Shown here one piece after another: positions 6,579 to 25,115 of a stretch of DNA of 64,000 nt; position 1 is the stretch's first letter, and every line of letters begins with the position of its first letter. Position numbers and translations under genes: made by a program. The stretch comes from Oceanicola sp. 22II-s10i (GTDB lineage Bacteria > Pseudomonadota > Alphaproteobacteria > Rhodobacterales > Rhodobacteraceae): the NCBI RefSeq assembly GCF_002210105.1, contig NZ_AQQU01000003.1, forward strand, positions 124,001-188,000. The letters run 5' to 3'. The notes under the pieces are model-generated. The model was given only the letters and a program-made list of their open reading frames with translations. It had not been told where the DNA came from and searched no databases.

Positions 6579-7568
6579 TCACTTCTTCCAGCCGAGCTGT
6601 CCGCACAGCCGCTGCTGCGCCGCCTCGAACTCGTCCGCCAGCCGGTCGATCAGCACCGACGCCGGAACGACCTCCTTGACCATCCCGATGCCCTGTCCGG
6701 ACCCCCAGATGTCCTTCCACCGCTTGCCCTTCGACCCTTCGCCCGAGCCGAAGTTCATCTTGGACGGGTCGGCCTGCTCCAGCGCGTTCGGGTCCATGCC
6801 GGCCCGCGCGATGGAGGGCTTCAGGTAGTTCCCCCAAACCCCGGTGAAGAGGTTCGAATAGACGATGTCCGACGCCCCGTGCTGGGTGATCATCTCCTTA
6901 TAGCCCTCGACCGCATTGGCTTCCTCGGTCGCGATGAAGGCCGTCCCGGCATAGCCGCCGTCCGCCCCCATGGCGAGCGCCGCCAGCAGCGAATCGCCCT
7001 TGGCGATGGCCCCCGACAGGTAGAGCGGCCCGTCGAACCACTCCCGGATCTCCTGCACCAGCGCGAAGGGCGACAGCGCCCCGGCGTGACCGCCGGCCCC
7101 GGCGGCAACGGCGATCAGCCCGTCCGCGCCCTTCGAGATCGCCTTGCGGGCGAACATGTCGTTGATGATGTCGTGCAGCACGATGGCGCCAACCGAATGC
7201 GCGGCCTCGTAGACCCATTCCTGCGCGCCGAGCGAGGTGATCCAGACCGGCACCTTGTGCTTGACGCAAAGCTCCACGTCCCGCTCCAGCCGCGCGTTCG
7301 TGCGGTGCACGATCTGGTTCACCGCGTAGGGCGCGGCGGGGGCGTCCGGATTCGCCTGGTTGTAGGCGTCGAGTTCCTCGTTCAGCCGGACCAGCCACTT
7401 CTCCAGCTCGATCTCCTCGCCCTCCTTCTCGCGCGCGTTCAGCGCGGGGAACGAGCCGACGACGCCGGACTTGCACTGGGCCAGAACGAGGTCGGGGTTC
7501 GAGATGATGAAAAGCGGGCTGCCGATCAGCGGGATGCGCAGCTTTTCCAGCACGGCTGGTACGGTCAT
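6579..7568 (-). CDS. Nitronate monooxygenase / 2-nitropropane dioxygenase family flavoprotein
   Basis: A 329-residue FMN TIM-barrel protein of the nitronate monooxygenase family, which oxidises alkyl nitronates; relatives include enoyl-reductase-like enzymes. The phosphate/flavin motif GAGGHAGALSPF contains the family histidine (His161), LSGAIAKGDSLLAALAMGADG (about 193-213) is the FMN-phosphate site, and TAFIATEEA follows. The start has a strong GGGAGG ribosome site eight bases upstream. It is co-oriented with hyuB (90 bases away) and may be part of the catabolic island, but no shared operator lies directly before it. Confidence 0.88.
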   Translation of the reverse strand: MTVPAVLEKLRIPLIGSPLFIISNPDLVLAQCKSGVVGSFPALNAREKEGEEIELEKWLVRLNEELDAYNQANPDAPAAPYAVNQIVHRTNARLERDVELCVKHKVPVWITSLGAQEWVYEAAHSVGAIVLHDIINDMFARKAISKGADGLIAVAAGAGGHAGALSPFALVQEIREWFDGPLYLSGAIAKGDSLLAALAMGADGGYAGTAFIATEEANAVEGYKEMITQHGASDIVYSNLFTGVWGNYLKPSIARAGMDPNALEQADPSKMNFGSGEGSKGKRWKDIWGSGQGIGMVKEVVPASVLIDRLADEFEAAQQRLCGQLGWKK

Positions 7569-7658
7569 TCAGGGTCCTCCCTTGGTCATTCGCCATGCGG
7601 AAAGACATTCCGGCGGCGATCGCGACCACCCTATCGGCCCGGACCGGAGGCGCAATCG

Positions 7659-9413
7659 CTAGTTCGCCGGTTTCCCGTCCGTGGCAGTCCGAAGCGCGCG
7701 AGTCGCCGCAACGTCAATCCCGCCATCGGCATCCAGCACGACCGAGAACAGCGTCCGCGCCGCCTCGGCGGAATAGTAGCCAAGCCGCACATCCTCCGCG
7801 ACCGCCTCGGGATCACGGGTCGCCGGATCGCCCCAGCCCCCGCCACCGGGGGTCCTGACATGGACAACGTCGCCGGGCCCCAGCGGGATGTCCTGTTCCT
7901 TGGACAGGTGCGGCGGCACATGGGCCACGCCGTCCCGGATCACCTCCACCCGGTTCACCCCGCCATCGCCGCCGCCAAGGGCGCCCTGCGGCCCGACCCG
8001 CCCGTGATCCATGACGAAGCTCGCCCGCGCCGCGCCCCGACGCAGTTCCAGCGCGTAGTCCAGCCCGAAGCCGCCCCGCTGCGCACCCGCGCCGCCCGAC
8101 CCCTCGTGCAGCGCGTAGTGGTGGTAGAGCACCGGAAAGGCCTGCTCCATGATCTCCACCGGCGGCGCCTTGGAGATCCCGATGGTCGAGCACCCGTTCG
8201 ACAGCCCGTCGTGATCCGCATTGCCGCCGTAGCCGCCGCCCGACAGCTGGTACATCACGAAATCCCGCCCGCGCTCCGGATCGTGCCCGCCGAGGGCGAA
8301 GTTCCCGCTGGTGCCCGCCGGGGCGGCCGTGCAGCGGTCGGGCAGGGCGGGGGCCAGCGCGGCAAAGACCGCCTCCGCGATCCGCTGGCTCACCTCCGCC
8401 GCGCAGCCCGACACGGGCCGGGGATAGCGCGCGTCGAGGAAGGTGCCCTCGACCCCCGTCACCGTCAGCGGCTCGAACGCGCCCGCGCTGATCGGCACCT
8501 CGGGGAATATGTGCCGCATGGCGAGGTAGACCGAGGACAGCGTCGTCGCCATGACCGAATTCATCGGCCCGGTGCAGGGGGGCGAGGATCCGGCGAAGTC
8601 GAAGACCAGCCCGTCGCCCGCGCGCGTCACCGCCAGCCGGATCGCCAGCGGCGTGTCCACGACACCGTCGCTGTCCACCCAGGCCACGCTCTCGTGCCGC
8701 CCCTCGGGGATCTGCGCCACGAAGGCGCGCATCTGCTGCGCCGCCCGCGCGCGCAGCTCCGCGATGGCCCCGCGCACCGTGTCGTCACCGTAGCCGTCGA
8801 GCAGGGCGGTCAGCCTTTCCGCGCCCACCTCCAGCGCGGCGGCCTGCGCCTGCACATCGCCGATCCGCTGATCCGCCACCCGGATGTTGGAGCAGATGAT
8901 CGCGTAGATCTCCGGGTCCAGCACGCCTTGCTTGAACAGCCGAACGGGCGGCAGCCGCAGTCCTTCCTGTTCGACACTCGTGGCAGAGGCCGAGAACCCG
9001 CCCGGCACCGCGCCGCCGGTATCCGGCCAGTGCCCGGTGTTCGACAGCCAGCAGAAGATCTCGCCGTCGCGGTAGAACGGTTTCGCGAACCGCACGTCCA
9101 TAAGGTGCGTGCCGCCGAGGTAGGGATCGTTGACGATATAGATGTCGCCCGGCTGCGGCGCGGGGGTCAGCCCGTCGCGGATCCGCTCCACCAGAACCCG
9201 CGTCGAATATTGCATCACGCCGACGAAGACCGGCAGGCCGCCGGCCCCCTGCGCGATCAGCGCGCCGTCGGTGGCGTAGATGCCGTCGGACCGGTCGTTC
9301 GCCTCGGCGATCACGGGCGAGAAGGCGGCGCGGGAAAAGGCGAGGTCCATCTCGTCGCAGACCTGCTGCAGCCCCGCCTGGATGACGGACAGGGTGATCG
9401 GATCTAGCGTCAT
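7659..9413 (-). CDS. hyuB: Hydantoinase B / oxoprolinase beta-type subunit
   Basis: The B subunit of ATP-dependent N-methylhydantoinase, acetone-carboxylase and 5-oxoprolinase-type enzymes, which open lactam or imide rings (or carboxylate ketones) with phosphoryl transfer. The 584 residues contain the family landmarks PGDIYIVNDPYLGGTHLMDV (about 87-106), SATSVEQEGLRLPP and FSNTGHWPDTGG-like segment CWLSNTGHWPD, and the C-terminal GGGGWGDP loop. The partner hyuA lies upstream on the same strand, 130 bases away. Family membership is secure; the actual substrate is not resolved by sequence. Confidence 0.92.
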   Translation of the reverse strand: MTLDPITLSVIQAGLQQVCDEMDLAFSRAAFSPVIAEANDRSDGIYATDGALIAQGAGGLPVFVGVMQYSTRVLVERIRDGLTPAPQPGDIYIVNDPYLGGTHLMDVRFAKPFYRDGEIFCWLSNTGHWPDTGGAVPGGFSASATSVEQEGLRLPPVRLFKQGVLDPEIYAIICSNIRVADQRIGDVQAQAAALEVGAERLTALLDGYGDDTVRGAIAELRARAAQQMRAFVAQIPEGRHESVAWVDSDGVVDTPLAIRLAVTRAGDGLVFDFAGSSPPCTGPMNSVMATTLSSVYLAMRHIFPEVPISAGAFEPLTVTGVEGTFLDARYPRPVSGCAAEVSQRIAEAVFAALAPALPDRCTAAPAGTSGNFALGGHDPERGRDFVMYQLSGGGYGGNADHDGLSNGCSTIGISKAPPVEIMEQAFPVLYHHYALHEGSGGAGAQRGGFGLDYALELRRGAARASFVMDHGRVGPQGALGGGDGGVNRVEVIRDGVAHVPPHLSKEQDIPLGPGDVVHVRTPGGGGWGDPATRDPEAVAEDVRLGYYSAEAARTLFSVVLDADGGIDVAATRALRTATDGKPAN

Positions 9414-9543
9414 GACCGGCCCTCCGCAGGGCGGGGTTCAACTCTCGATACACATGGTGATGAAGCAGCGAGCCCTGCATGGACGCTAAATTCGGCGCGA
9501 GACCGAAGCGCAATCGACATGATACAGACGTGTCCCGACCCCA

Positions 9544-11592
9544 TCACACCGCCCCTCCGACCGTCACCACGATGTTCCCGATCCCGTCTCCCGCGGCCCG
9601 GTCGCCCGGCGGGATCAGGATCGTCGTGTCCATCTGTTCCAGCACCGCCGGTCCCTCGATCACCGCATCGAGGGGCAGCGCCTCGCGCCGGTAGACTGGG
9701 GTGTCGTGCCATACACCGTCGAACATCACCTGACGCCGCTCCCTCAGCGCCGCCGCGACAGTATCCAGCCGACCCTCCGGGTCGATCAGCGTCGACAGAT
9801 CCAGCGCGGGGCGTTGACCGATGACCGAGCAATTGGCGTTCACGACGACCGCGCGGATCGTCTCCAGCCGCACCCGGAAGCGGTTCCAGTAGACCTCTTC
9901 GAACCGCGCCTGCAGGGCCTCCCGCGTCACCTCCGGGACATCAAGATCGACCCGCAACATATGTGTCTGTCCCAGAAACTGCATGTCGAGCGACCAGATC
10001 GCGCGCACGCCGTCGAGCGCGACGCTCTCCCTGCCGACCAACGCGCGCCCCTCGGCCTCCTGCGCCCGCAGCACCCGGGCCAGTTCGTTCATGTCCAGCG
10101 TGTCGAGCGGCCGGTTCACCGTCGTGACGAAGTCATGCCGCAGGTCCGCCACCACGCAGCCGAGCGCGTTTGTGATCCCCGGCCGGGCTGGGATCAGCAC
10201 CCGTGGCACCCCCAATTCCCGCGCCAGCGCGCAGGCATGCAGCGGCCCGGCACCACCGAAGGCGAACAGGGCGAAATCGCGCGGATCGGCGCCCAGAGAC
10301 ACCGAGACCATCCGGATCGCGCCCGCCATCTTCACATTCGCCATCCGCACCACGGCCTCGGCTGAGCTTTCCACGCTAACCCCCAGAGGTCGCGCAAGTT
10401 TCTCATCGAAGACACGCCGCACATGCTCCAGCGTCACGCCGCCCTCGACGGACTTCAGCCGGCCCGGATCGAGCCGTCCGAGGATCAGGTTCGCGTCCGA
10501 AATCGTCGGGGCTTCGCCGCCACGACCGTAACAGATCGGCCCCGGCACCGCGCCCGCGCTCTCCGGCCCGACCTCGAGCAGACCGGCGGCGTTCACCCGC
10601 GCGATCGATCCGCCGCCCGCACCCACGGTGCGCACGTCGACCATCGGCACGTGGATCGGCATCGCGTATTCGACCTCGATCTCGTTCGACACCGCCGGCT
10701 GCGCCCGCCGGATCAGCGCCACGTCGGTCGAGGTGCCGCCCATGTCGTAGGTGATCAGGTCCTCCATCCCCGCCGCGCGCCCCGTGACCGCCGCCGCCAT
10801 CACGCCCGACGCGGGGCCCGACATCACCGTCTTGGCCGCCTCCCGCGCGACGCGCGAGGCCGAGACCATGCCGCCGTTCCCGTTCATCACCAGCAGGTCG
10901 CCGCGATAGCCGCCGCCCCGCAATTCTCCCGCGAGCCTGGACACGTAGCGTTCCAGGAGCGGCTGGACCGAGGCATTGACGGCCGCCGTCACCCCGCGTT
11001 CGAACTCTCGGCTTTCGGACAACAGGGCGTGGCCCAGCGTGACGTGATCGTTCGGCCAGAGCCGGGCCAGAATCTCGCCTGCGCGCAGTTCATGCGCGGG
11101 GTTCGCGTAGGCGTGCAGGAAATGCACGACGACCGAGACGCATCCCGCCGCGATTAGCCGCTCCGCCGCCGCCGCCAGCGCGTTTTCGTCCAGCGGTGTC
11201 ACGACGCGGCCCTGCGCGTCCATCCGCTCGGGCACCTCCAGCCGCAGGTCGCGTGGGATGACGGGGCGGAATTCGCCTTTCATTCCGTAGGCTTGCGGGC
11301 GCGTCCTGCGGCCCAGTTCCAGCACGTCCCGAAAGCCCGCCGTGGTGATCAGCCCGGTCCGGGCCAGCTTGCGCTCCAGCACCGCGTTGGTCGTGGTCGT
11401 GGTCCCGTGCACGATCAGCCCGACGCGGGACAGATCGGCCCCGGCCTCGTTATGCGCCGCGATCACGCCGCGCGCCTGGTTGTCGAGCGTGGTCGGCACC
11501 TTGGCCAGACGCACGGCGCCGGTGGCCGGGTCCATGAGAATCAGGTCGGTGAAGGTTCCGCCGACATCGACGCCGACGACCTGATCGGACAT
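9544..11592 (-). CDS. hyuA: Hydantoinase A / oxoprolinase alpha-type ATPase subunit
   Basis: The ATP-binding A subunit partnering hyuB, member of the actin-like ATPase superfamily. N-terminal GVDVGGTFTDLILMD (residues 5-19) is phosphate loop 1; HGTTTTTNAVLERK, MSGPASGVMAA, YDMGGTSTDVALI and FGGAGPLHACALA complete the nucleotide-site motifs in order. The 682-residue length is normal. I start at MSDQVV because the family begins just before the GVDVGG strand. Fourteen to thirty bases upstream of the ATG lies an inverted repeat matching those before the importer and beside marR, so expression is probably controlled by the MarR protein at 18130-18546. Confidence 0.93.
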   Translation of the reverse strand: MSDQVVGVDVGGTFTDLILMDPATGAVRLAKVPTTLDNQARGVIAAHNEAGADLSRVGLIVHGTTTTTNAVLERKLARTGLITTAGFRDVLELGRRTRPQAYGMKGEFRPVIPRDLRLEVPERMDAQGRVVTPLDENALAAAAERLIAAGCVSVVVHFLHAYANPAHELRAGEILARLWPNDHVTLGHALLSESREFERGVTAAVNASVQPLLERYVSRLAGELRGGGYRGDLLVMNGNGGMVSASRVAREAAKTVMSGPASGVMAAAVTGRAAGMEDLITYDMGGTSTDVALIRRAQPAVSNEIEVEYAMPIHVPMVDVRTVGAGGGSIARVNAAGLLEVGPESAGAVPGPICYGRGGEAPTISDANLILGRLDPGRLKSVEGGVTLEHVRRVFDEKLARPLGVSVESSAEAVVRMANVKMAGAIRMVSVSLGADPRDFALFAFGGAGPLHACALARELGVPRVLIPARPGITNALGCVVADLRHDFVTTVNRPLDTLDMNELARVLRAQEAEGRALVGRESVALDGVRAIWSLDMQFLGQTHMLRVDLDVPEVTREALQARFEEVYWNRFRVRLETIRAVVVNANCSVIGQRPALDLSTLIDPEGRLDTVAAALRERRQVMFDGVWHDTPVYRREALPLDAVIEGPAVLEQMDTTILIPPGDRAAGDGIGNIVVTVGGAV

Positions 11593-11605
11593 GGGGAGCC
11601 TCGCT

Positions 11606-11622
11606 TTGTTGGTATGCAAATG
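11606..11622 (-). promoter_or_regulatory. Putative MarR operator upstream of hyuA
   Basis: On the minus strand it reads CATTTGCATACCAACAA, identical at 14 of 17 positions to the site between marR and the hydroxylase operon (18605-18621). Its core is TTGC-N6-ACAA, one mismatch from a perfect TTGT-N6-ACAA inverted repeat. It lies 14 bases from the hyuA start codon, a repressor position. Confidence 0.6.
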
Positions 11623-11700
11623 ATTTGCGCGGGGCGGGGGTGCTGTCAATCCGGGGTTTCATCCGGTGTCATTGGCATCGACCGATGGTACCGGTGTCGA

Positions 11701-11758: not shown

Positions 11759-11803
11759 CGATTTGTCTCTGGCACCGGCGGCGGGAACGGGGATGATGCG
11801 GAC

Positions 11804-13189
11804 ATGCGCATTGTCCTGATCTTCCTTGGTCTTCTGCTGCCCGGACGGGCATTGGCCCACACGTCGGAAGGCGCCTTCGTGCTGCTGCTGCCGACCGGGC
11901 ATTACATCGCGGGGGGCGTGGCGACCGTTGCCGTGACCGTTCTGCTGATGGCCCTGCTGCCCGCCCGGCGGGCCGAGGCGATTTTCCGGCCCGTGCCCCT
12001 GCACCGTGTCGGGCGCAGGGGGCGGAGACCCTGGCCGAGCCTGCTCAGCCTGCTGGTGCTGCTCTGCGCGCTGTGGATGGGGCGGACGGGCAGCCAAGAC
12101 CCGACGATCAATGCGCTGCCGCTGCTGGTCTGGACGGGGTTCTGGCTGTTTCTGGTGTCGCTGCAGGCGGTTGTCGGCGACATCTGGCGCGTGCTGAATC
12201 CGTGGACCGGCCTCTGGGCGCTGGCGGGGCGGCGGGCGTGGCTGAACTATCCGCGCGGGTTGGGGCGCTGGCCGGGGCTGGTGTCGCTGATGGCCTTCGC
12301 CGCCTTCCTGCTGGCCGACATCGCGCCGGCCGCGCCGGAGCGTCTTGCGCTCGCGGCGGGGGGCTACTGGGCGTTTCACATGGCGGGCACGCTGATCTTC
12401 GGGCTGCGCTGGCTGCTGAGCGCCGAGGCGCTGACGATCCTCATGCGCGCCTATGCCGGGCTGGCCCCCGTCGGCCGGAGGCGAGGGCGGCGGTCGCTGG
12501 GGCTGCCCGGATGGCGCTGGATGGCGCGGCCCGCGCCGCCGATGGCGCTGGCGGTCGTCATGATCGCGCTGCTCGGGATCGGGAGCTTCGACGGCATCAA
12601 CGAGACCTTCTGGTGGCTGGCGCGGATCGGGATGAACCCGCTGGAGTTCACCGGGCGTTCGGCGGTCACGATCCAGACGCTGACCGGGCTGTTCCTGTCC
12701 GTCGGGCTGCTGGTCGCCGTCTTTGCCGCCACGCTGCAGACGGGGATGATACTGGCCGAGGGCGAGGAGGGCGGCGCCGGCCGGGGCGGGCTGGCCCATG
12801 CGTTCCGCGTCTTTGCGCCGACGATCCTCCCGATCGCCATCGCCTACCACGTCGCGCATTACCTGACCGCGATGCTGGTCGAGGGGCAGTACCTGGCGCT
12901 CTACCTCAACGACCCGTTCCGGCAGGGCTGGCACCTGCTGGGGATCGAGGCGCGGCACGTGACGACCGGGTTCTTCAACACGCGCGCCACCGTTCAGGTG
13001 ATCTTCCTCGCGCAGGCCGGGACGGTGGTTCTGGGGCACGTTCTGGCGATCCTGATGGCGCATGTCCTCGCGCTGCGGCTCTACGGAGACGGGCGCCGCG
13101 CGCTGCTGTCGCAACTGCCGCTTGCCGCTTTCATGATCGCCTACACGCTTTTCGGGCTCTGGCTGCTCGCTTCGCCGCGCGGGGCATGA
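11804..13189 (+). CDS. Polytopic membrane protein of unknown function
   Basis: A 461-residue inner-membrane protein. The N-terminus MRIVLIFLGLLLPGRALAHTS looks like a signal peptide cleaved after ALA or a first helix. About nine or ten further hydrophobic segments follow, including the clear ones SLLSLLVLLCALWMG, LPLLVWTGFWLFLVSLQAV, APPMALAVVMIALLGIGSF, LTGLFLSVGLLVAVFAA and VVLGHVLAILMAHVLAL. A conserved-looking His pair (AYHVAHYL) lies within a helix. I do not recognise the family with confidence; similar proteins are sometimes labelled fenitrothion-hydrolase-like, without functional proof. Its position between hyuA and the importer suggests membership of the island but it has no operator of its own. 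Confidence 0.75.
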   Translation: MRIVLIFLGLLLPGRALAHTSEGAFVLLLPTGHYIAGGVATVAVTVLLMALLPARRAEAIFRPVPLHRVGRRGRRPWPSLLSLLVLLCALWMGRTGSQDPTINALPLLVWTGFWLFLVSLQAVVGDIWRVLNPWTGLWALAGRRAWLNYPRGLGRWPGLVSLMAFAAFLLADIAPAAPERLALAAGGYWAFHMAGTLIFGLRWLLSAEALTILMRAYAGLAPVGRRRGRRSLGLPGWRWMARPAPPMALAVVMIALLGIGSFDGINETFWWLARIGMNPLEFTGRSAVTIQTLTGLFLSVGLLVAVFAATLQTGMILAEGEEGGAGRGGLAHAFRVFAPTILPIAIAYHVAHYLTAMLVEGQYLALYLNDPFRQGWHLLGIEARHVTTGFFNTRATVQVIFLAQAGTVVLGHVLAILMAHVLALRLYGDGRRALLSQLPLAAFMIAYTLFGLWLLASPRGA

Positions 13190-16525: not shown

Positions 16526-17250
16526 GCACGATCCTGTCCACACGCGGGCTGTCCCGCTCCTTCGCCGGGCTGCGCGCGGTGCACGAGGTGGATTTCGACC
16601 TGCCGCAGGGCGAGATCCGCGCGCTGATCGGGCCGAACGGGGCGGGCAAGACGACCTTCGTGTCGATGCTGATCGGCCGCCTGCCGCCGTCCTCGGGCCA
16701 GATCAGTTTCGACGGGCGCGACGTCACGCGCCTCTCCGCACCCGAACGTGTACGGCTCGGCATGGCCTACACGTTCCAGATCACCTCGGTCTTTTCGCGT
16801 TTGTCGGCGCATGAGAACGTCGCGCTCGCCGCCCGCCGGCGGCTCGGCACGGACGCGGCTGCGGTCGAGGCGGAAGTCGCCGGCGCGCTGGAGCGGACGG
16901 GGCTGAGCGGGCGCGGCGGGGAGGTGGCCGAGGATCTGTCCTACGGGCACCAGCGCCTGCTGGAGATCGCCATGGGCCTCGCGCAAAGGCCGCGGCTGAT
17001 GATCCTCGACGAGCCGACGCAGGGTCTGGCCGAGAGCGAGATCGAGAGCTTCAAGGCGCTGATCCGCGATCTGGCGCGCGAGACGACGATCCTGCTGATC
17101 GAGCACAACATGGCCGTGGTCATGGCGCTGGCGCAGCGGATCACCGTGCTGAACTTCGGCGAGGTGCTGGCCGAGGGGACACCGGAGGAGATCCATGCCA
17201 ACCCGGAGGTTCAGGCGGCCTATCTCGGGACGGGAGGGGCCGATGTGTGA
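16522..17250 (+). CDS. ABC transporter ATP-binding protein, LivG type
   Basis: A 242-residue cytoplasmic ATPase energising the importer. Walker A GPNGAGKT is at residues 37-44, the signature is the LivG-typical non-canonical LSYGHQ (about residue 140), Walker B is LMILDEPTQGL, and the switch histidine follows in LLIEHNMAVV. The start overlaps the livM stop. The following ATPase gene is not immediately adjacent: a 180-base gap with an 82-bp palindrome intervenes, unusual for livG-livF. Confidence 0.95.
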   Translation: MSTILSTRGLSRSFAGLRAVHEVDFDLPQGEIRALIGPNGAGKTTFVSMLIGRLPPSSGQISFDGRDVTRLSAPERVRLGMAYTFQITSVFSRLSAHENVALAARRRLGTDAAAVEAEVAGALERTGLSGRGGEVAEDLSYGHQRLLEIAMGLAQRPRLMILDEPTQGLAESEIESFKALIRDLARETTILLIEHNMAVVMALAQRITVLNFGEVLAEGTPEEIHANPEVQAAYLGTGGADV

Positions 17251-18129: not shown

Positions 18130-18546
18130 TCAGCCGAGCCGGGCGAGCAGGTCGAGGAACTGGCGCTGTTCGTCCTGCGACAGCGGCGAGAGGGTTTCAT
18201 CGGACACCGCGAGCCCTTCGTCCACCAGCCGCTCGAACAGGGTCTGCCCGGTGGCGGTCGCCGACAGGATCATCCGCCGCCGGTCGTCGGGATCGGGCGC
18301 GGCGGTCACCAGCCCCTTGGCCCGCAGCCGGTCGGCGACGCCCTTGATCGTCGCCGCATCCATCGCCACCGCACGGCCGAGCGCGTTCTGCGACAGCGGT
18401 CCGATCTCGCAGAGCCGGGCGAGGGCCGCGAATTGCGTCGGCGTCAGCGCCGGGATATGGGCCGCGAAGATCGCGAGGTGGCGCTGGTTCGCCCGGCGCA
18501 TCAGGTAGCCGACCTGTGCGTCCAGAGAGTAGGCCGGTTGTGTCAT
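18130..18546 (-). CDS. MarR-family transcriptional regulator
   Basis: A 138-residue winged-helix dimeric regulator. The fold is visible as LTPTQFAALARLCEIGPLSQ (helices 2-3), ALGRAVAMDAATIKGVADRLRAKGLV (recognition helix) and DPDDRRRMILSATATG (wing). MarR proteins are typically repressors released by an aromatic or heterocyclic ligand. I take MTQPAYSLD as the start; a longer frame upstream would cover the operator. It is divergent from the hydroxylase operon and the 113-base gap holds a TTGT-N6-ACAA inverted repeat, so autoregulation and control of the island are likely. Confidence 0.9.
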   Translation of the reverse strand: MTQPAYSLDAQVGYLMRRANQRHLAIFAAHIPALTPTQFAALARLCEIGPLSQNALGRAVAMDAATIKGVADRLRAKGLVTAAPDPDDRRRMILSATATGQTLFERLVDEGLAVSDETLSPLSQDEQRQFLDLLARLG

Positions 18547-18604: not shown

Positions 18605-18621
18605 CGTTTGTACACCAACAA
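18605..18621 (+). promoter_or_regulatory. Putative MarR operator between marR and the hydroxylase operon
   Basis: CGTTTGTACACCAACAA contains a perfect TTGT-N6-ACAA inverted repeat. It lies 58 bases from the marR start and 38 bases from the FAD-subunit start, positioned to affect both promoters. Related sites precede hyuA and the importer. Confidence 0.65.
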
Positions 18622-18659
18622 TTCCGCGCGCCCCAAGGCGCCGAGCCGAAAGCGCCCCG

Positions 18660-19493
18660 ATGTCCGCCTTTCACCGGCCGACCGACCTGACCGAAGCCCT
18701 TGCCATCGCGGCCGGGCCGGGGGTCAGGCCTGCGGCGGGCTGTACCGATCTGTTTCCGGCGACCGAGGCGCAGGTGCTGGCTGGCCCGGTGCTGGACCTG
18801 ACCGCCATCTCCGGCCTACGCGGCATCGCGCGCGACGGCAAGGGCTGGCGGATCGGGGCGGTGACCACCTGGGCCGACGTAATCGCGGCGGACCTGCCGC
18901 CGGCCTTCGACGGGCTCAAGGCGGCCGCGCGGGAGGTCGGGTCGGTCCAGATCCAGACCTCGGGCACTGTCGCGGGGAATCTGTGCAACGCCTCGCCCGC
19001 CGCCGACGGGGTGCCGCCGCTGCTGACCCTCGGGGCGGAGGTGGAGATCGCGTCGGCCACCGGTATGCGCCGCCTGCCGCTCGGGGCCTTCCTGACCGGC
19101 GTGCGGCAGACGGCGCTTGCGCCGGGCGAGATCGTGACGGCGATCCTGATCCCAGAGGTGGCCGGACAGGGCGCGTTCCTGAAGCTGGGGGCGCGGCGGT
19201 ATCTCGTGATCTCGATCGCGATGGTCGCCGTGCGGCTTGTGGTCGTCGACGGACGGATCGCTGAGGTCTCACTGGCGGTCGGCGCCTGTTCTCCTGTGGC
19301 GCAGCGGCTTTCGGCTCAGGAGGCCGCACTGGCGGGTCTGACACTGGCCGAAGCCGAAGGCGCGGTGACCGAGACGCTGGTGGCCGATGCCCTGTCGCCG
19401 ATCGCGGATGTGCGGGCGGACGCGGCCTATCGCATCGCGGCGGCGACCGATCTGGTCCGTCGCGCGGTGGCTGAGGCGGGGAGGGGCGCATGA
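18660..19493 (+). CDS. Molybdenum hydroxylase FAD-binding subunit (CoxM/XdhB-like)
   Basis: The 277-residue medium subunit of a xanthine-dehydrogenase-family enzyme. It carries electrons from the 2Fe-2S centres to FAD and on to an acceptor. The FAD pyrophosphate motif AAGCTDLFP lies near residue 25, and TSGTVAGNLCNASPAADGVPP (about 100-120) is the second FAD-binding loop; SIAMVAVRL marks the C-terminal CO_deh_flav_C domain. It overlaps the next gene by ATGA. Together they give a two-polypeptide enzyme. Confidence 0.92.
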   Translation: MSAFHRPTDLTEALAIAAGPGVRPAAGCTDLFPATEAQVLAGPVLDLTAISGLRGIARDGKGWRIGAVTTWADVIAADLPPAFDGLKAAAREVGSVQIQTSGTVAGNLCNASPAADGVPPLLTLGAEVEIASATGMRRLPLGAFLTGVRQTALAPGEIVTAILIPEVAGQGAFLKLGARRYLVISIAMVAVRLVVVDGRIAEVSLAVGACSPVAQRLSAQEAALAGLTLAEAEGAVTETLVADALSPIADVRADAAYRIAAATDLVRRAVAEAGRGA

Positions 19494-22216
19494 CCATCCG
19501 GCAACCGGTTCCGCTGGGTCTGACCGTCAACGGGCGCGATCACCACGTCGCCACCGATCCGACGCGGCGGTTGTCCGACGTGCTGCGGCGCGATCTGGGG
19601 CTGACCGGCACGAAATCCGGCTGCGACGCGGGCGACTGCGGGGCCTGCACGGTGCTGATCGACGGCGCGCCTGTCTGTGCCTGCCTGACACCTGCCGCGC
19701 AGGCGGTCGGGCGCCGGGTCGAGACGGTCGAGGCGCTGGCTGCCGCGCCGGAAACCGCGGCGTTGCAGGACGCCTTTCTGCGCCACGGGGCCGCGCAATG
19801 CGGGATCTGTACGCCGGGCATGCTGATGGCCGCGACCGCCCTGATCCGCCGGACGCCGCATCCGACGCGGGCCGAGGCGGAGGCGGCGCTCGGTGGTGTG
19901 CTCTGCCGGTGCACGGGTTATGCAAAGATCATCGACGCGGTTTGCAACGTTCATCCCGGTCCCACGCCCGAGATGCCGCAGGCGGGCGCCGCGGTCGGGG
20001 CCCGGCTGCCGCGTCTTGACGGGGCCGACAAGGTCACCGGCGCGGAACGGTTCGGGGCCGATCACCTGCCCGAGGGCGCGCTTGTGGTCCGTGCCATCCG
20101 CTCGCCGCACCCCGCGGCGCGGTTCGTGTTCAGCGACCTCGACGGGTTCGCGCGCCGCACCGGCCTTATGGTGTTCACCGCCGCCGACATCCCCGGCGAG
20201 AACCGCTTCGGCGTGATCCCGCCCTTCGCCGATCAGCCCGCGCTGGCCGAGACCGAGGCGCGGCTGCGGGGCGAGGCCATCGCGCTGGTCGCAGGCCCGC
20301 GGGCGGCGATCGAGGCTGCGGACCTCTCAGCCTTTCCCGTGAGTTGGGAAATACTGGACCCCGTGACCGACCCGGCACAGGCGCAGGGTGCGCGGCCGGT
20401 TCTGGCGGAGCGTCCCGACAACGTGCTGACCCGTGGCCGCGTGGTCCGTGGCGATGCAGCCACCGGAATTGCCGATGCAGAGCATGTGGTTACGGGCGAA
20501 ACCTCAACCGCGTTTGTCGAGCATGCCTATATCGAGCCCGAAGCCGGTGCCGCGTGGATGGAGGGCGAAACGCTCTGCATCCGCGCCTGCACGCAGGCCC
20601 CTGTCATGGACCGCGACGACGTGGCAAAGCTGCTCGCCCTGCCGGTGGAACGCGTCCGCATCCTGCCCTCGGGCACCGGCGGCGGCTTCGGCTCCAAGCT
20701 CGATGTCTCCCTCCAGCCACTGATCGGGCTGGTGGCGCTGAAGACGGGCCGCCCCGCCGTCATGACCTACACGCGGCGCGAGTCGATGCAATCGACCACC
20801 AAGCGGCACCCGGCCCGTATGACCGCCAGCATCGGTTGCGACGCCGGGGGCCGGATCACCGCGATGGAATTCGACGGCACCTTCGACACCGGCGCCTATG
20901 CCTCCTGGGGGCCGACGGTGGCGAACAGGGTGCCGGTCCATGCCTCCGGCCCCTATTTCACGCCCACCTACCGGGCCGAAACCATCGCGCTCCACACCAA
21001 CAATCCGATCGGCGGCGCATTCCGGGGCTTCGGCGTGCCGCAGGCGGCAATCCTGCAGGAAACGCTCTACGACGACCTCGCCGAAAAGGCCGGGATCGAC
21101 CGGCTGGAATTCCGCCGGATCAACGCTTTGCGGGACGGTCAGCCCACGGTCTGCGGCCAGAGCCTCGGCGGTGTCGGGATCGGCGCCTGCCTCGATGCGC
21201 TGTCGGTGGAATGGGTTCGCGCCGTGGCCGAGGCCGAGAGCTTCAACGCCACGGCGGGGCGCATGCGCCGCGGCGTCGGGGTCGCCTCATGCTGGTATGG
21301 CTGCGGCAACACCGCGCTGCCGAACCCCTCGACCATGCGTGTCGGGCTGACTCCCTCGGGCCGTGTCGTGCTGCATCAGGGCGCGACGGATATCGGGCAG
21401 GGGTCGAACACGGTGATCCCGCAGATCTGCGCCGATGCGCTCGGCCTGCCGCTGGCCGCGTTCGACCTGATCGGCCCCGACACCGCGCTGACACCCGACG
21501 GCGGCAAGACCTCGGCCTCGCGCCAGACCTACGTGTCGGGCAAGGCCGCGATGCTGGCCGGGCAGGCGCTCAGGGCGCAGGTCCTCGCCCTGACCAACCG
21601 CGCCCCGGATGCCGCGCTTTTGCTCTCAGGCGCGATCCTGACCGTCCGCGACAGCGCCGGTGAAACCACGCTCGACCTCGCCCGGCTGCCGGTGGCGGAG
21701 GGTTACGCACTGGTGGCCGAGGAAAGCTACGACCCGCCGACCGCGCCGCTGGACGCGGACGGGCAGGGCGCGCCCTATGCGGTCTACGGCTATGGCGCGC
21801 AACTGGCCGAGGTGGAGGTCGACACGGTCCTCGGCACCACCCGTGTCCTGCGGATCGTCGCGGCCCATGACCTCGGCCGGGTCATCAACCCGCTGCTGGC
21901 CGAAGGCCAGATCGAGGGCGGCATCGCGCAGGGCCTCGGCCTCGCGCTGATGGAGGAATACCTGCCCGGCCGCACCGAGAACCTGCACGATTACCTGATA
22001 CCGACGACGGGCGACATGCCCGAAATCCGCTCGATCCTGCTGGAGGTCCCCGATCCCGAGGGACCCATGGGCGCCAAGGGCCTCGGCGAACACGCCCTGA
22101 TCCCGACCGCCCCGGCGATCCTCAACGCGATCCGCCACGCCACCGGCGCCCGCATCCGCCAGCTGCCCGCGCTGCCGCACCGCGTCCTCGCCGCCATGTG
22201 GGAGGCGGGCAGATGA
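19490..22216 (+). CDS. Molybdenum hydroxylase, fused 2Fe-2S and molybdopterin subunits
   Basis: A 908-residue fusion of the small Fe-S and large Mo subunits of a xanthine-dehydrogenase-family hydroxylase. Such enzymes insert water-derived oxygen into N-heterocycles or aldehydes. The plant-type ferredoxin domain binds one cluster with Cys45, Cys50, Cys53 and Cys65. The second, helical domain has CGICTPGM (Cys104, Cys107) and CRCTGY (Cys139, Cys141). The Mo domain begins near residue 165; GGFGSK (about 400) and GAFRGFG contact the cofactor, and the GAKGLGE motif ends with the catalytic glutamate Glu867. Length and glutamate position resemble the fused aldehyde oxidoreductase Mop of Desulfovibrio gigas, but the substrate here is unknown. 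Confidence 0.93.
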   Translation: MTIRQPVPLGLTVNGRDHHVATDPTRRLSDVLRRDLGLTGTKSGCDAGDCGACTVLIDGAPVCACLTPAAQAVGRRVETVEALAAAPETAALQDAFLRHGAAQCGICTPGMLMAATALIRRTPHPTRAEAEAALGGVLCRCTGYAKIIDAVCNVHPGPTPEMPQAGAAVGARLPRLDGADKVTGAERFGADHLPEGALVVRAIRSPHPAARFVFSDLDGFARRTGLMVFTAADIPGENRFGVIPPFADQPALAETEARLRGEAIALVAGPRAAIEAADLSAFPVSWEILDPVTDPAQAQGARPVLAERPDNVLTRGRVVRGDAATGIADAEHVVTGETSTAFVEHAYIEPEAGAAWMEGETLCIRACTQAPVMDRDDVAKLLALPVERVRILPSGTGGGFGSKLDVSLQPLIGLVALKTGRPAVMTYTRRESMQSTTKRHPARMTASIGCDAGGRITAMEFDGTFDTGAYASWGPTVANRVPVHASGPYFTPTYRAETIALHTNNPIGGAFRGFGVPQAAILQETLYDDLAEKAGIDRLEFRRINALRDGQPTVCGQSLGGVGIGACLDALSVEWVRAVAEAESFNATAGRMRRGVGVASCWYGCGNTALPNPSTMRVGLTPSGRVVLHQGATDIGQGSNTVIPQICADALGLPLAAFDLIGPDTALTPDGGKTSASRQTYVSGKAAMLAGQALRAQVLALTNRAPDAALLLSGAILTVRDSAGETTLDLARLPVAEGYALVAEESYDPPTAPLDADGQGAPYAVYGYGAQLAEVEVDTVLGTTRVLRIVAAHDLGRVINPLLAEGQIEGGIAQGLGLALMEEYLPGRTENLHDYLIPTTGDMPEIRSILLEVPDPEGPMGAKGLGEHALIPTAPAILNAIRHATGARIRQLPALPHRVLAAMWEAGR

Positions 22217-22275: not shown

Positions 22276-23720
22276 CCGAACCGGCCCCGAAACCCGACAA
22301 GATCCGCTGCGACGCCTGCCCGGTGATGTGCTACGTGGCCGAGGGCCGGACCGGCGCCTGCGACCGCTATGCCAACGAGAACGGGCGGATCGTCCGCTGC
22401 GATCCGCTGACCATCCTGGAGGAGGCCACAGCCCACGGGACACCGTTGCGCCCCTTCCTCGGCGCCGGCTGGACGGGCGATCTGACTCCTGATGACGGGC
22501 GCGTGGTGACGGCGATCGGGGCGGGCACGACCTATCCGGATTTCAAACCGGCACCCTTCATCGTCTCGCGCCAGTTCGACGGGATCGACGCCGTGACCGT
22601 GGTGACCGAGGCGATCTATTCCTACTGCGGTGTCAAGGTGAAGATCGACACCGACCGCCATCTCGGCCGCGAAGGCGCTCGCGTTCTGGCGCAGGGCGAA
22701 GAGGTGGGGCTGGTCATCACCTCGGAATACGGGTCCCAGATGCTGTCGCTCGGTGGGGTCGACCACCTGACCGGCGGCTCGAAATCCGAAGGCCGGGCCA
22801 CCTGCGACACGCTCCTCGCGCTTTGCAACTGCGAAGCGGTGGATTTGCAAATCGACGGAGGCGCGCAGGTCACCGTTCAGGCTGGCCGTCCGCCGATCGT
22901 CGACGGCCAGCCCGAGATCCGGATGCGCGTCGGCTGCGGCTCGGCCACCATCGGCATGTTCGCCTCGCAATGGCAGGGGCTGGTGGACGAGGTGGTGGTG
23001 GTCGACGACCACATCACCGGCGTCGTGTCGGAGCATCAGGCCGGCAAGGTCATCGGCTGGCCCGACACCGGCATCCGCATCCGCGGCCACCGCTCCACGC
23101 CCGGTCGCTATTTCCGGGTGGCCGAGCCGGGGCTCGGCTGGGGCGGCACCGATATCGACGACCCGCTGTCGATCCTGAACCCTTGGCTGGCGAAAAAGGG
23201 TGCGCGGCCGGGCCTGACGCTGCTCATGGTCTCGACCACCGGCGAGCACGCGGCGTACTACGTGCTCGACGACGACCTCGTCCCGCGGCAACAGCCGATG
23301 CCCGCCGCCCTTCAGCCCAGTGTCGACCTGATCGCCGAGAACTGCGAACCCGCGCTCTGCACGGTGATGTTCCAGGCCGGCGCGGGCGGATCGCTCCGGT
23401 CCGGGGCGACAAAGAACCCGGTGCAACTGACGCGCGCCGTCCAGTCCGGCGCGGTCCGGGTCACCGTCGGCGGGGCGCCGGCCTACGTCTGGCCCGGCGG
23501 CGGCATCACCCTGATGGTGGACGTCACCCGCCTGCCACCCGGCAGTTTCGGCTACGTCCCCACACCGGCCCTCGTCGCTCCGCTGGAGTTCACCACCGAC
23601 CGCGCCACTTACCGGGCGCTCGGCGGCCACGACGACGCGGTGCGTGACATTGCCGAGGTTCTCGCCAACGGCAATGAATACGGCGCGCGCCACCGCATTC
23701 TCGGAGAGGGCGACCGGTGA
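22272..23720 (+). CDS. 6-hydroxynicotinate reductase-like iron-sulfur protein
   Basis: A 482-residue protein resembling the 6-hydroxynicotinate reductase (Hnr) of anaerobic nicotinate fermentation, which reduces the pyridone ring with ferredoxin. The N-terminal cluster motif has Cys13, Cys16, Cys20 and Cys30 (CDACPVMC, then GACDRYAN). Further conserved stretches include SYCGVKVKIDTDRHLGREGA, VITSEYGSQMLSLGG and MRVGCGSATIGMFA. Its place directly behind a molybdenum hydroxylase repeats the order of the known pathway's first two steps (ring hydroxylation, then ring reduction). The name is inherited from homology; the reaction in an aerobe is unproved. Confidence 0.72.
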   Translation: MTEPAPKPDKIRCDACPVMCYVAEGRTGACDRYANENGRIVRCDPLTILEEATAHGTPLRPFLGAGWTGDLTPDDGRVVTAIGAGTTYPDFKPAPFIVSRQFDGIDAVTVVTEAIYSYCGVKVKIDTDRHLGREGARVLAQGEEVGLVITSEYGSQMLSLGGVDHLTGGSKSEGRATCDTLLALCNCEAVDLQIDGGAQVTVQAGRPPIVDGQPEIRMRVGCGSATIGMFASQWQGLVDEVVVVDDHITGVVSEHQAGKVIGWPDTGIRIRGHRSTPGRYFRVAEPGLGWGGTDIDDPLSILNPWLAKKGARPGLTLLMVSTTGEHAAYYVLDDDLVPRQQPMPAALQPSVDLIAENCEPALCTVMFQAGAGGSLRSGATKNPVQLTRAVQSGAVRVTVGGAPAYVWPGGGITLMVDVTRLPPGSFGYVPTPALVAPLEFTTDRATYRALGGHDDAVRDIAEVLANGNEYGARHRILGEGDR

Positions 23721-24544
23721 CCGGCCCGCAGGCCGCATGGCTGGCGGACGGACGTCTGCACCTGAATCACGGACCCATCGACCTGATCGTCAGTGCCGAG
23801 GGGCAGGGCGCCCAGACCGCCTATGACGCCGCCGCCGCCCGCTTCGCCAGCGTCCTGACCGAGCTTGTGGCCGATCTCCCGCGCCTCCGCCAGCCGGAGC
23901 CCCGGCCCTTCACTGCTCCGATTGCCCGTGCCATGGCCGCCGCCACGCGGCCCTTCGCCCCTGAATTCATCACCCCGATGGCCGCCGTCGCGGGTGCCGT
24001 GGCCGACGATATCCTTTTGCAAATGACCCGCGCGGCGAATTTGCATAAGGCGATCGTGAACAACGGCGGCGACATCGCCCTGCACCTCGCCCCCGGCGCG
24101 TCCTTCACCGCGATGATGCCCGGCGGCCGCATCACGCTCGACCACGTCTCGCCATCCCGCGGCATCGCCACCTCGGGCCGGGGCGGCCGGTCGCATTCTC
24201 TCGGTATCGCTGACGCCGTCACGGTCCTCGCGGCCAACGCCGCCGCCGCAGATGCCGCCGCCACGATGATCGCAAATCAAGTCGATCTGCCCGGCCACCC
24301 TTCCGTGCTCAGGACCCCGGCCAACCTGCTCTCGCCCGACAGCGACCTCGGCGACCGACCCGTCACCACCGGCCTCGGCCCGCTCACCGCGGATGAGGTC
24401 GCGCAGGCTCTCGCCCGCGGGGCCGCCTATGCCGCTGCACTTATCGCCCGCGGACTGATCCACGCCGCGCATCTCTGCCTGAATGACCAAAGCCGAACGG
24501 TCGACCCCGAGACTGCAATCGAAAAGGACCCGGCCCATGCCTGA
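23717..24544 (+). CDS. UPF0280 family protein
   Basis: A 275-residue uncharacterised protein that I assign to UPF0280 from overall pattern: the Gly-rich C-terminal half has MMPGGRITLDHVSPSRGIATSGRGGRSHSLG broken by loops, and IARAMAAATRPF, VAGAVADDILLQM and NGGDIALHL precede it. The fold is related to ApbE-like proteins in some classifications, which is not a functional assignment. It starts with GTG overlapping the upstream stop (GTGA), and its stop overlaps the next gene's start by eight bases, so it belongs to the same translational unit as the Hnr-like protein. Confidence 0.7.
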   Translation: MTGPQAAWLADGRLHLNHGPIDLIVSAEGQGAQTAYDAAAARFASVLTELVADLPRLRQPEPRPFTAPIARAMAAATRPFAPEFITPMAAVAGAVADDILLQMTRAANLHKAIVNNGGDIALHLAPGASFTAMMPGGRITLDHVSPSRGIATSGRGGRSHSLGIADAVTVLAANAAAADAAATMIANQVDLPGHPSVLRTPANLLSPDSDLGDRPVTTGLGPLTADEVAQALARGAAYAAALIARGLIHAAHLCLNDQSRTVDPETAIEKDPAHA

Positions 24545-25115
24545 CTTCACCCTCCGCAAGACCATGCTTTTCGTCGAGGAGGTCCACCATGACGGTGGCC
24601 CGGCACCGGACACCCCGCGCCTCCGCGCCGCCATCGTCGCCCTCGTCACCAACCCTTTCGCCGGCCGCTACGAGCCCGACCTGCAGTCGGCGATGGACGA
24701 CCTGAAACCGCTCGGCCTGATGATGACCGACCGCCTGATCGCCGCTCTCGGGCGCGACGGCATCGACGGCTACGGCAAAGCGGCGATGTGCGGCACGGGC
24801 GGAGAGCTGGAACACACGGCGCTCTGGCACGTCCCCGGCGGCTACGCCATGCGCGACCGTCTTGGCCAGGCGCTGGCGATTGTCCCCTCGGCCATGAAGC
24901 AGGGCGGCCCCGGCACCCGCATCGACGTGCCCCTCGGCCATATCGACGCCGCCTATGTCCGCTCCCATTTCGACGCGATGGAGGTCGGCCTTCCCGACGG
25001 CCCGCGCGAAAACGAACTCCTCTTCGCCCTCGCGATGTCCAGGGGCCCGCGCATCCATTCCCGCATGGGTGGCCTCGAATCCCACCAGATCGAAAAACGC
25101 GACGGCCTCAGGTAA
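24537..25115 (+). CDS. DUF1185 (amino acid synthesis family) protein
   Basis: A 192-residue DUF1185 protein. Structures of this family show a trimeric YjgF/chorismate-mutase-like fold and suggest a role in amino-acid metabolism; no reaction is established. Visible features are the opening FTLRKTMLFVEEVHHDGG, VTNPFAGRY, GYGKAAMCGTGGELEHTALWH and the C-terminal ENELLFALAMSRGPRIHSRMGGL. The start overlaps the UPF0280 stop by eight bases. It is the last gene of the hydroxylase operon; repeat copy F follows within 10 bases. Confidence 0.82.
   Translation: MPDFTLRKTMLFVEEVHHDGGPAPDTPRLRAAIVALVTNPFAGRYEPDLQSAMDDLKPLGLMMTDRLIAALGRDGIDGYGKAAMCGTGGELEHTALWHVPGGYAMRDRLGQALAIVPSAMKQGGPGTRIDVPLGHIDAAYVRSHFDAMEVGLPDGPRENELLFALAMSRGPRIHSRMGGLESHQIEKRDGLR

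What the first reader, a model, noticed from the sequence alone, without database searches (positions are those of the whole stretch)
6579..25115. MarR-controlled catabolic island that pairs a molybdenum hydroxylase with a 6-hydroxynicotinate-reductase-like protein, a hydantoinase and a dedicated importer
Seen: contiguous genes for hyuBA, a Liv-type importer, a MarR regulator, a fused Mo hydroxylase with its FAD subunit, an Hnr-like Fe-S protein, UPF0280 and DUF1185, the last five translationally coupled. Known: in anaerobic nicotinate fermentation a Mo enzyme hydroxylates the ring and Hnr then reduces it; HyuAB-type enzymes open lactams with ATP. Inference: an aerobe takes up an N-heterocycle, hydroxylates it, reduces the ring and opens the lactam, with UPF0280 and DUF1185 filling unassigned steps. 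The substrate and the order of steps are unknown.
Basis: partly seen in the sequence, partly recalled or inferred. Interest (0 to 1): 0.85.

Follow-up and report, generated by a model that had tools for sequence, protein, structure and literature searches.

The report
Pyridine breakdown island with maturation partner
A bacterium carries a gene island, under its own regulator, that probably takes up and breaks down a vitamin-B3-like ring compound by a partly known route; one unexplained gene always travels with the ring-reducing enzyme and looks like a tool that finishes that enzyme by handling its flavin cofactor.

Summary
The genes are real (NMO-like, HyuB, HyuA, a membrane protein, Liv importer, MarR, Mo hydroxylase FAD and fused large subunits, Hnr-like, UPF0280, DUF1185). 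A MarR-type operator recurs at the marR/Mo-Hnr promoter (9 of 9 genomes) and hyuA promoter (8 of 9), so "one regulon" is supported. Hydroxylate-reduce-open is not new in aerobes: it is published for Azorhizobium and Bradyrhizobiaceae. New here: (1) HyuAB stands where related clusters have enamidase; none of 116 loci has both at the threshold used, and the labels interleave on the Hnr tree. (2) The Mo hydroxylase is optional: four congeners lack an orthologue. (3) UPF0280 occurs with Hnr (72 of 72 sampled Hnr genomes; no strong match without Hnr), and its confident model matches only UPF0280 and ApbE-type flavin transferases in the PDB at E below 0.01. I propose that UPF0280 matures Hnr, probably by loading or attaching flavin (E. 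barkeri Hnr is recalled to carry covalent flavin). Against: ApbE's catalytic His is missing, the superposition is only moderate, the acceptor motif is imperfect, and published work on COG2122 points to sulfur. DUF1185 is promiscuous and unexplained. Verdict: new variant of a known pathway with a directly testable function for UPF0280/COG2122.

The parts
6579..7568 (-). NMO/FabK-like flavoprotein, last gene of the hyu unit
   Evidence: PF03060 75.7 bits; beside HyuB in 6 of 8 congeners, not in G005 and G008
7659..9413 (-). HyuB, caprolactamase/oxoprolinase-type subunit
   Evidence: PF02538 513.6 bits; caprolactamase beta model 305.9, under its cut-off of 1000
9544..11592 (-). HyuA, ATP-dependent lactam-opening subunit (ATG at 11592)
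   Evidence: PF01968, PF05378; caprolactamase alpha model 489.8, under its cut-off of 1000; nearest solved N-methylhydantoinase 7hk5 and 5-oxoprolinase 6yra; start
11605..11620 (-). predicted MarR operator at the hyuA promoter
   Evidence: match to a pattern read from this and the other site; a relaxed form is at this promoter in 8 of 9 genomes
11804..13189 (+). multi-pass membrane protein of unknown family, linked to this importer (multi-pass judged by eye)
   Evidence: no Pfam or NCBIfam match; in 8 of 8 congeners and beside the same binding-protein type in L013, L014, L059, L071
13287..14579 (+). Liv-type substrate-binding protein
   Evidence: PF13458 168.5 bits
14667..15593 (+). LivH-type permease
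   Evidence: PF02653
15590..16525 (+). LivM-type permease
   Evidence: PF02653; start
16522..17250 (+). LivG-type ATPase
   Evidence: PF00005, PF12399
17431..18126 (+). LivF-type ATPase
   Evidence: PF00005; start
18130..18546 (-). MarR-family regulator
   Evidence: PF01047 43.5 bits
18607..18622 (+). predicted MarR operator between marR and the Mo/Hnr operon
   Evidence: relaxed form at this promoter in 9 of 9 genomes
18660..19493 (+). FAD subunit of the Mo hydroxylase
   Evidence: PF00941, PF03450; ATG at 18660
19490..22216 (+). fused [2Fe-2S]/molybdopterin subunit of the Mo hydroxylase
   Evidence: PF00111, PF01799, PF02738, PF20256
22272..23720 (+). Hnr-like (6-hydroxynicotinate reductase-like) protein; C13, C16, C20, C30, C119, C222, C358 invariant; candidate flavin acceptor T380 in GAGGSLRSGATKNP
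   Evidence: conservation
23717..24544 (+). UPF0280/COG2122, proposed dedicated maturase (flavin-handling) of Hnr
   Evidence: NF003322 344.9 bits; model pLDDT 94 with ApbE-type fold; pairing with Hnr
24537..25115 (+). DUF1185/AA_synth protein, role unknown
   Evidence: PF06684 216.2 bits; start inferred from the overlap

Best explanation
The island is one MarR-repressed regulon for taking up and degrading a pyridine carboxylate of the nicotinate kind. The importer brings it in; the Mo hydroxylase puts a hydroxyl next to the ring nitrogen; Hnr reduces the pyridone to a cyclic enamide lactam of the tetrahydro-6-oxonicotinate type; HyuAB opens that lactam with ATP, doing the job that enamidase does in related clusters. 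UPF0280 is not a pathway enzyme but the dedicated, cytosolic maturase of Hnr: an ApbE-fold protein that I think loads or covalently attaches its flavin. Shown by computation: gene content, shared operator-like sites, Hnr-UPF0280 pairing, ApbE-type fold, HyuAB/enamidase exclusivity at the threshold used. Inferred: substrate, order of steps, repression, flavin transfer. DUF1185 has no assigned step.
For: Pairing: 44 of 289 alphaproteobacterial genomes have Hnr and the same 44 have UPF0280; 32 of 398 phylum genomes have Hnr and the same 32 have a strong UPF0280 match; 72 distinct genomes, since four are in both samples. In the fetched DNA of 47 of 47 loci, the window's own included, and 79 of 80 genome-contig loci, the other contig ending 229 bases after Hnr. 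Plasmids: 26 with Hnr at E 1e-5, 27 with UPF0280 at E 0.01, the extra one with an Hnr C-terminal remnant behind IS1071. Fold: pLDDT 94.1; the 41 Foldseek matches with E up to 0.0072 are all UPF0280 or ApbE/Ftp/FmnB. Ser and Asp of ApbE's Ser-His-Asp set map to S153 and D179, the same in 78 of 80 rows, 2 being gaps. G009 and G030 have Hnr but no PF02424 (canonical ApbE) match. HyuAB 16, enamidase 83, both 0, neither 17 of 116 loci at 300 bits. Operator.
Against: ApbE's catalytic His is not conserved in UPF0280 (position 160: F 37, H 19, L 14, Q 7 of 80 rows), the segment that holds it is missing in the alignment, PF02424 scores 8.2 against a cut-off of 25.6, and the Foldseek superpositions on ApbE entries are moderate (TM by query 0.35-0.58, rmsd 5.6-13.9 A). 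The Hnr acceptor candidate fits D-x-x-[ST]-G-A-[ST] (PMC12052999, passages) poorly: Ser in place of Asp, and most relatives have AGVT rather than SGAT. Published work ties COG2122/MA1715 to sulfur traffic and homocysteine synthesis (PMC5764234, PMC12068725, passages). Four congeners have no orthologous Mo hydroxylase; one of them (G014) also lacks DUF1185; in G004 HyuB is a 59-residue stub. The Hnr model is weak (pLDDT 73.8) and finds no fold. The covalent flavin of E. barkeri Hnr is recalled, not read here.
Confidence: 0.6

Rival explanations
1. UPF0280 matures the Fe-S centres of Hnr or delivers sulfur (persulfide) to it, as proposed for MA1715/COG2122 with DUF39 and NIL-ferredoxin in homocysteine synthesis, and has nothing to do with flavin.
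For: [quoted passage not shown] PMC12068725 calls MA1715 a sulfur trafficking protein (passage). Hnr has 7 invariant Cys. The ApbE catalytic His is lost.
Against: UPF0280 shows no invariant Cys in the alignment of 32; a Cys kept in 90% or more (position 77) is missing from the window protein. Its fold matches are flavin transferases. No DUF39 (PF01837) match in 398 Pseudomonadota genomes, the window's own included, so its partner here is not DUF39.
Confidence: 0.25
2. UPF0280 is a structural subunit or an ordinary enzyme of the pathway, working on a metabolite that every Hnr pathway makes.
For: Beside Hnr whichever ring-opening enzyme is present.
Against: ApbE-type fold with conserved metal-motif Asp and Thr, and pairing with Hnr kept while hydroxylase type, ring opener, importer and DUF1185 copy number vary, which fits an accessory of Hnr better.
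Confidence: 0.2
3. The island degrades a different lactam-forming compound, such as a pyrimidine, hydantoin or pyrrole, and Hnr does not act on 6-hydroxynicotinate.
For: Four congeners lack an orthologous Mo hydroxylase but keep HyuAB and the importer; the Mo subunit falls under every equivalog cut-off listed.
Against: L071 pairs the same importer type and a fused Mo hydroxylase with an enamidase-like gene; the two enamidase-like proteins tested, from L016 and L017, match 2vun over their length; similar operator sites occur in HyuAB and enamidase clusters.
Confidence: 0.3
4. HyuAB acts on another compound in the same strain and its exclusion of enamidase is only phylogenetic.
For: All 16 HyuAB loci (300 bits or more) are alphaproteobacterial, while the 84 others have enamidase or neither, so a pooled test is inflated by kinship. 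The nearest congener, G004, has only a 59-residue HyuB stub.
Against: Within 32 alphaproteobacterial loci 0 have both (16 HyuAB, 9 enamidase, 7 neither), the labels interleave on the Hnr tree, and hyuA has the same operator.
Confidence: 0.2

Closest known systems
Aerobic nicotinate cluster of Azorhizobium caulinodans, Bradyrhizobium and strain SG-6C (PMC3511419, passages read)
   Same: [quoted passage not shown] in the 80 genome-contig loci here the constant unknown genes beside Hnr are UPF0280 (79) and DUF1185 (77), so I infer that these are the two
   Different: HyuAB instead of enamidase, a fused Mo subunit instead of the NicAB-like set, a different importer type, a membrane protein and an NMO-like gene
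Nicotinate fermentation cluster of Eubacterium barkeri (Alhapel 2006, recalled, paper not held)
   Same: hydroxylate, reduce, open; Hnr homologue (42% identity between E. barkeri and SG-6C Hnr, PMC3511419)
   Different: anaerobic; enamidase; selenium-containing four-subunit hydroxylase (recalled); whether it has UPF0280 could not be checked
ApbE/Ftp/FmnB flavin transferases
   Same: fold, GGD motif, Ser and Asp of the active site, ADxxxT motif
   Different: no conserved catalytic His, under the PF02424 cut-off, no signal peptide by eye, proposed partner is a cytosolic Fe-S-type enzyme
COG2122 of Methanosarcina (MA1715) and Desulfovibrio (2o34 DVU1097)
   Same: same UPF0280 fold and family; also works beside an iron-sulfur protein system (PMC5764234)
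   Different: partner there is DUF39 plus NIL-ferredoxin for homocysteine; here it is Hnr
Caprolactamase CapAB / 5-oxoprolinase / N-methylhydantoinase
   Same: HyuAB domain set; ATP-dependent lactam opening expected
   Different: scores 489.8 and 305.9 against equivalog cut-offs of 1000, so the substrate differs or is unknown

Membership tests
Hnr/THON nicotinate catabolic cluster | Mo hydroxylase encoded with Hnr | tested here: met
   but no orthologue in four congeners with the island
Hnr/THON nicotinate catabolic cluster | Hnr homologue | tested here: inconclusive
   61-73% identical to plasmid proteins, many annotated as 6-hydroxynicotinate reductase; the E. barkeri sequence itself was not available
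Hnr/THON nicotinate catabolic cluster | enamidase opens the reduced ring | tested here: not met
   HyuAB instead; no amidohydrolase among the island genes; the rest of the genome was not searched for one
Hnr/THON nicotinate catabolic cluster | growth on nicotinate through THON | not testable with these tools
   needs growth and metabolite tests
UPF0280/COG2122 | NCBIfam NF003322 at its cut-off | tested here: met
   344.9 bits, cut-off 290
ApbE flavin transferase | ApbE fold | tested here: met
   pLDDT 94 model; Foldseek E 6e-5 to 7e-3, probability 0.98-1.00, TM by query 0.35-0.58 to ApbE/Ftp/FmnB entries
ApbE flavin transferase | PF02424 gathering score | tested here: not met
   8.2 bits against 25.6
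ApbE flavin transferase | Ser-His-Asp active-site set (Vc Ser241, His257, Asp285; PMC12052999) | tested here: not met
   Ser and Asp kept, His not conserved; mapped through three ApbE sequences from relatives, not through the Vc protein itself
ApbE flavin transferase | target carries D-x-x-[ST]-G-A-[ST] | tested here: inconclusive
   SLRSGAT in the window; Thr in 47 of 47, and 42 Thr plus 1 Ser of 43, but SLRAGVT is the common form
ApbE flavin transferase | transfers FMN from FAD to Thr or Ser | not testable with these tools
   needs purified proteins
Caprolactamase CapAB | NF050156/NF050157 at cut-off | tested here: not met
   489.8 and 305.9, cut-offs 1000
HyuAB/oxoprolinase superfamily | Pfam Hydantoinase_A and _B | tested here: met
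   306.3 and 513.6 bits

The most novel reading that the evidence does not exclude
UPF0280 is a new type of cytosolic flavin transferase, without ApbE's catalytic His, that installs the covalent flavin of 6-hydroxynicotinate reductase at the invariant Thr/Ser of its GAGGSLRxGxT loop. This would give the COG2122 family, known from methanogens and sulfate reducers, a molecular function and would make the homocysteine system a second user of it.
Probability: 0.35. Interest if true: 0.8.

Novelty: new variant of a known kind. Interest (0 to 1): 0.6.

Why it matters
UPF0280/COG2122 is a family, known from methanogens and sulfate reducers too, without an agreed biochemical function. Here it can be tied to one partner enzyme and to the flavin-transferase fold, which turns an open question into a two-protein co-expression experiment in E. 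coli. It would also explain how an Fe-S-type reductase of an aerobic pathway gets its flavin. Separately, the apparent swap of enamidase for an ATP-dependent HyuAB enzyme predicts a substrate for a large, badly annotated enzyme family.

Tried and rejected
Homology of Hnr to DUF39/HcyBio (the other COG2122 partner): Pfam at E up to 10 gave no PF01837 match for Hnr, and PF01837 has no match in 398 Pseudomonadota genomes or in G122, so no DUF39 sequence was available to compare; left open. Hnr fold: weak model, no structural match; the IMPDH hit in the PDB (E 0.0075 and 0.032) covers about 100 residues and was set aside as chance. A weak UPF0280-like match without Hnr in G122 (E 3.4e-5) lacks the NNGGD motif and has no Hnr on its 3.8-kb contig; three more weak partial matches (20-22 bits) without Hnr in G324, G426 and G581 were not followed. 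DUF1185 as a strict partner was rejected: 387 plasmids carry a match at E 0.01 against 26 with Hnr at E 1e-5, and 3 of 36 loci lack it by the profile used. Canonical ApbE as the maturase was rejected because Hnr occurs without it in G009 and G030 (both drafts, 93% complete).

Dropped or relabelled rows: for the tree I used 49 of 117 rows (36 loci, 12 of 80 genome-contig loci, the window) and relabelled L073, L074 and L076 as HyuAB after finding it further upstream; in L073's genome, G004, HyuB turned out to be a 59-residue stub. Unknown rows count as not-HyuAB there, so the 8 label changes overstate the swaps. The HyuAB/enamidase count used a 300-bit threshold; L018 has an enamidase and also a 164-bit HyuA hit at its cut edge. 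L014's hydroxylase label rests on a query taken from L014 itself. In one search the FAD-subunit query was in a wrong frame and its hits there mean nothing; it was corrected from then on. The ApbE side of the profile comparison held only 3 of 20 loci that passed my motif filter. The UPF0280 alignment of 80 rows holds the window more than once (79 distinct sequences). The operator pattern was read from the window's two sites and congeners, so its fit there is partly by construction; the background rate in 94 other loci was 7 hits in 1.77 Mb.
Full report
What is there. The window lies on a 374-kb contig of a 5.1-Mb genome. From left to right: an NMO/FabK-like gene, hyuB and hyuA on the minus strand; a membrane protein, binding protein, two permeases and two ATPases on the plus strand; marR on the minus strand; then the Mo hydroxylase FAD subunit, the fused [2Fe-2S]/Mo subunit, Hnr-like, UPF0280 and DUF1185 on the plus strand. 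Three of the four junctions in the last block overlap; Mo hydroxylase and Hnr are 55 bases apart.

One island, one regulator. In eight same-genus genomes the order recurs, with differences: the NMO-like gene is beside HyuB in 6 of 8 (not G005, G008), HyuB of G004 is a 59-residue stub and its FAD subunit matches only from residue 86, the Mo genes are absent in four, and DUF1185 is absent in G014. An operator-like sequence (TTTGYAYACCAACAAW) is found exactly at two places in the 64-kb window, the hyuA promoter (11605-11620) and the marR/Mo promoter (18607-18622); with up to 3 mismatches 4 matches are found and 0.26 expected. A relaxed form (TTTGYRYRCNAAYR) occurs at the marR promoter in 9 of 9 genomes and at the hyuA promoter in 8 of 9 (not G012), and at no other place in the 367 kb read; 94 other loci gave 7 hits in 1.77 Mb. 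The pattern was taken from these sites, so the conservation across genomes, not the match itself, is the evidence. Similar sites occur in more distant Hnr loci with either ring opener (L013, L014, L016, L018, L057, L071, L079-L081), but not in L015 and L059.

The pathway. Hnr is highly conserved (61-73% identity to plasmid relatives from several orders). Of 80 genome-contig loci, by title betaproteobacterial or unassigned, 70 have an enamidase-like amidohydrolase, 62 a NicA-like small subunit, 55 a NicB-like large subunit and 55 a ferredoxin-NADP reductase, many contigs being cut short. Two such amidohydrolases, from L016 and L017, match the solved ENAMIDASE 2vun over their length (E 1e-106 and 2.4e-111). 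So Hnr loci belong to the nicotinate-type route, which is already published for aerobes: passages of PMC3511419 describe reduction of 6-hydroxynicotinate in Azorhizobium, an Hnr homologue in strain SG-6C and a cluster with two conserved unknown proteins; passages of PMC9304392 describe THON opening by the bifunctional enamidase. The window differs in having HyuAB. In 116 loci with a fetched neighbourhood, 16 have HyuAB, 83 enamidase, none both and 17 neither at 300 bits; L018 has in addition a 164-bit HyuA hit at its edge. Within the 32 alphaproteobacterial loci the numbers are 16, 9, 0 and 7. The labels interleave on the Hnr tree: 8 changes of the HyuAB label, at least 6 forced by well supported branches, unknown rows counted as not-HyuAB, so the true number of swaps is lower. 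L071 has the window's importer type and a fused Mo hydroxylase but an enamidase. I read this as replacement of enamidase by an ATP-dependent lactam-opening enzyme. A full-text search for 6-hydroxynicotinate with hydantoinase found no paper; the listings show none on this point by title, though one unread fungal paper (PMC6346535) holds both 'oxoprolinase' and 'nicotinate degradation'.

The Mo hydroxylase is optional. Four congeners (G001, G012, G014, G016) have marR directly followed by Hnr; their matches to the window's Mo subunit are 30-35% identical, against 74-79% in the four that have it. Either these strains take up an already hydroxylated ring or another enzyme does the step.

UPF0280 goes with Hnr. 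In 289 alphaproteobacterial genomes Hnr is in 44 and UPF0280 in 45; the extra one, G122, is a weak match without the family motif. In 398 genomes of the phylum Hnr is in 32 and strong UPF0280 matches in the same 32, plus three weak partial ones of 20-22 bits. The two samples share four Hnr genomes, so 72 distinct Hnr genomes, all with UPF0280. Within the fetched DNA UPF0280 is found in 47 of 47 loci and 79 of 80 genome-contig loci, the exception being a contig that ends first. On plasmids, 26 records have Hnr and 27 UPF0280; in the odd one an Hnr C-terminal remnant lies between IS1071 and UPF0280. By contrast DUF1185 matches 387 plasmids. The pairing persists whatever hydroxylase, importer or ring opener is present, which points to Hnr itself as the partner.

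UPF0280 has the flavin-transferase fold. The model is confident (pLDDT 94.1, pTM 0.92). Foldseek against the PDB lists 2o34 (DVU1097, UPF0280; TM by query 0.59-0.61) first and then only ApbE, Ftp and FmnB flavin transferases down to E 0.007 (TM by query 0.35-0.58, rmsd 5.6-13.9 A); the next match has E 1.2. The topology is shared, the superposition only moderate. A profile comparison with three ApbE sequences from relatives gives E 5.9e-4 over residues 88-184, probability 29%, aligning GGD, TSG and ADxxxT. S153 and D179, which I match to ApbE Ser241 and Asp285 by motif, are the same in 78 of 80 rows with 2 gaps; the His is not conserved and its segment is absent. Price et al. (PMC5764234, passages) noted the distant ApbE link and that homology did not seem to reach the flavin-binding region; nothing here overturns the latter. 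Canonical ApbE is unlikely to stand in for it, since G009 and G030 have Hnr but no PF02424 match, and G006, G007, G025 and G027 have ApbE but no Hnr.

Why flavin. From memory, the abstract of Alhapel et al. 2006 reports a covalently bound flavin and Fe-S clusters in E. barkeri Hnr; the paper is not held, and among the 15 of 38 papers listed none shows the flavin term together with the nicotinate term. Hnr here has one conserved stretch resembling the ApbE target motif, GAGGSLR[AS]G[VA]T-x-N-P: the Thr is kept in 47 of 47 and is Thr in 42 and Ser in 1 of 43, the hydroxyl being the common feature. The resemblance is loose (no Asp, usually Val for Ala), so the acceptor is a candidate only; invariant Cys 119, 222 and 358 are others.

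Weighing. The pairing and the fold are solid. That UPF0280 matures Hnr is likely (about 0.55); that it does so by flavin transfer is plausible (about 0.35), with sulfur or Fe-S delivery the main rival because of the published COG2122 work (PMC5764234, PMC12068725, passages). No paper in the held library contains the term UPF0280; of the nine papers that hold COG2122, DUF1185 or 6-hydroxynicotinate reductase I read passages in four and saw the rest as listings only, so a link to Hnr in print is not excluded. DUF1185 proteins have solved chorismate-mutase-like folds without a known function (PMC2954203, passages); a relative in trigonelline breakdown, TgnF, is said to stimulate another enzyme (PMC7913881, passage).

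Noticed in passing
window 11804-13189 (+): Membrane protein (by eye multi-pass) with no Pfam or NCBIfam match, next to this type of binding protein in 8 of 8 congeners and in L013, L014, L059 and L071, with either HyuAB or enamidase; perhaps an accessory of the importer.
   Followed up: partly
window 6579-7568 (-): NMO/FabK-like flavoprotein at the end of the hyu unit in 6 of 8 congeners; no hit in the Hnr loci of other genera that were scanned.
   Followed up: partly
L188 16443-16625 and L073 5833-6393 (genome G004): In the nearest congener HyuB is a 59-residue stub directly before the NMO-like gene and the Mo FAD subunit matches only from residue 86: the island looks partly decayed there.
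   Followed up: no
L083 (Hydrogenophaga plasmid pBPS33-1): Four places with UPF0280 on one plasmid; repeated units of UPF0280, MarR, Rieske oxygenase and reductase genes alternate with IS1071, one shown with an Hnr C-terminal remnant in front: looks like amplification by a transposon.
   Followed up: partly
L016, L018, L066, L069, L070, L079-L081 and others: A Rieske ring-hydroxylating oxygenase gene recurs in some Hnr loci, suggesting a further route variant.
   Followed up: no
genome-contig loci L084-L163: A ferredoxin-NADP reductase gene lies near Hnr in 55 of 80 loci, a likely electron source for Hnr; none was found among the window's island genes.
   Followed up: no
window 26533-28683 (+): Fused anthranilate synthase (TrpE-clade3, 1170.7 bits) just beyond the island, probably unrelated to it.
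   Followed up: no
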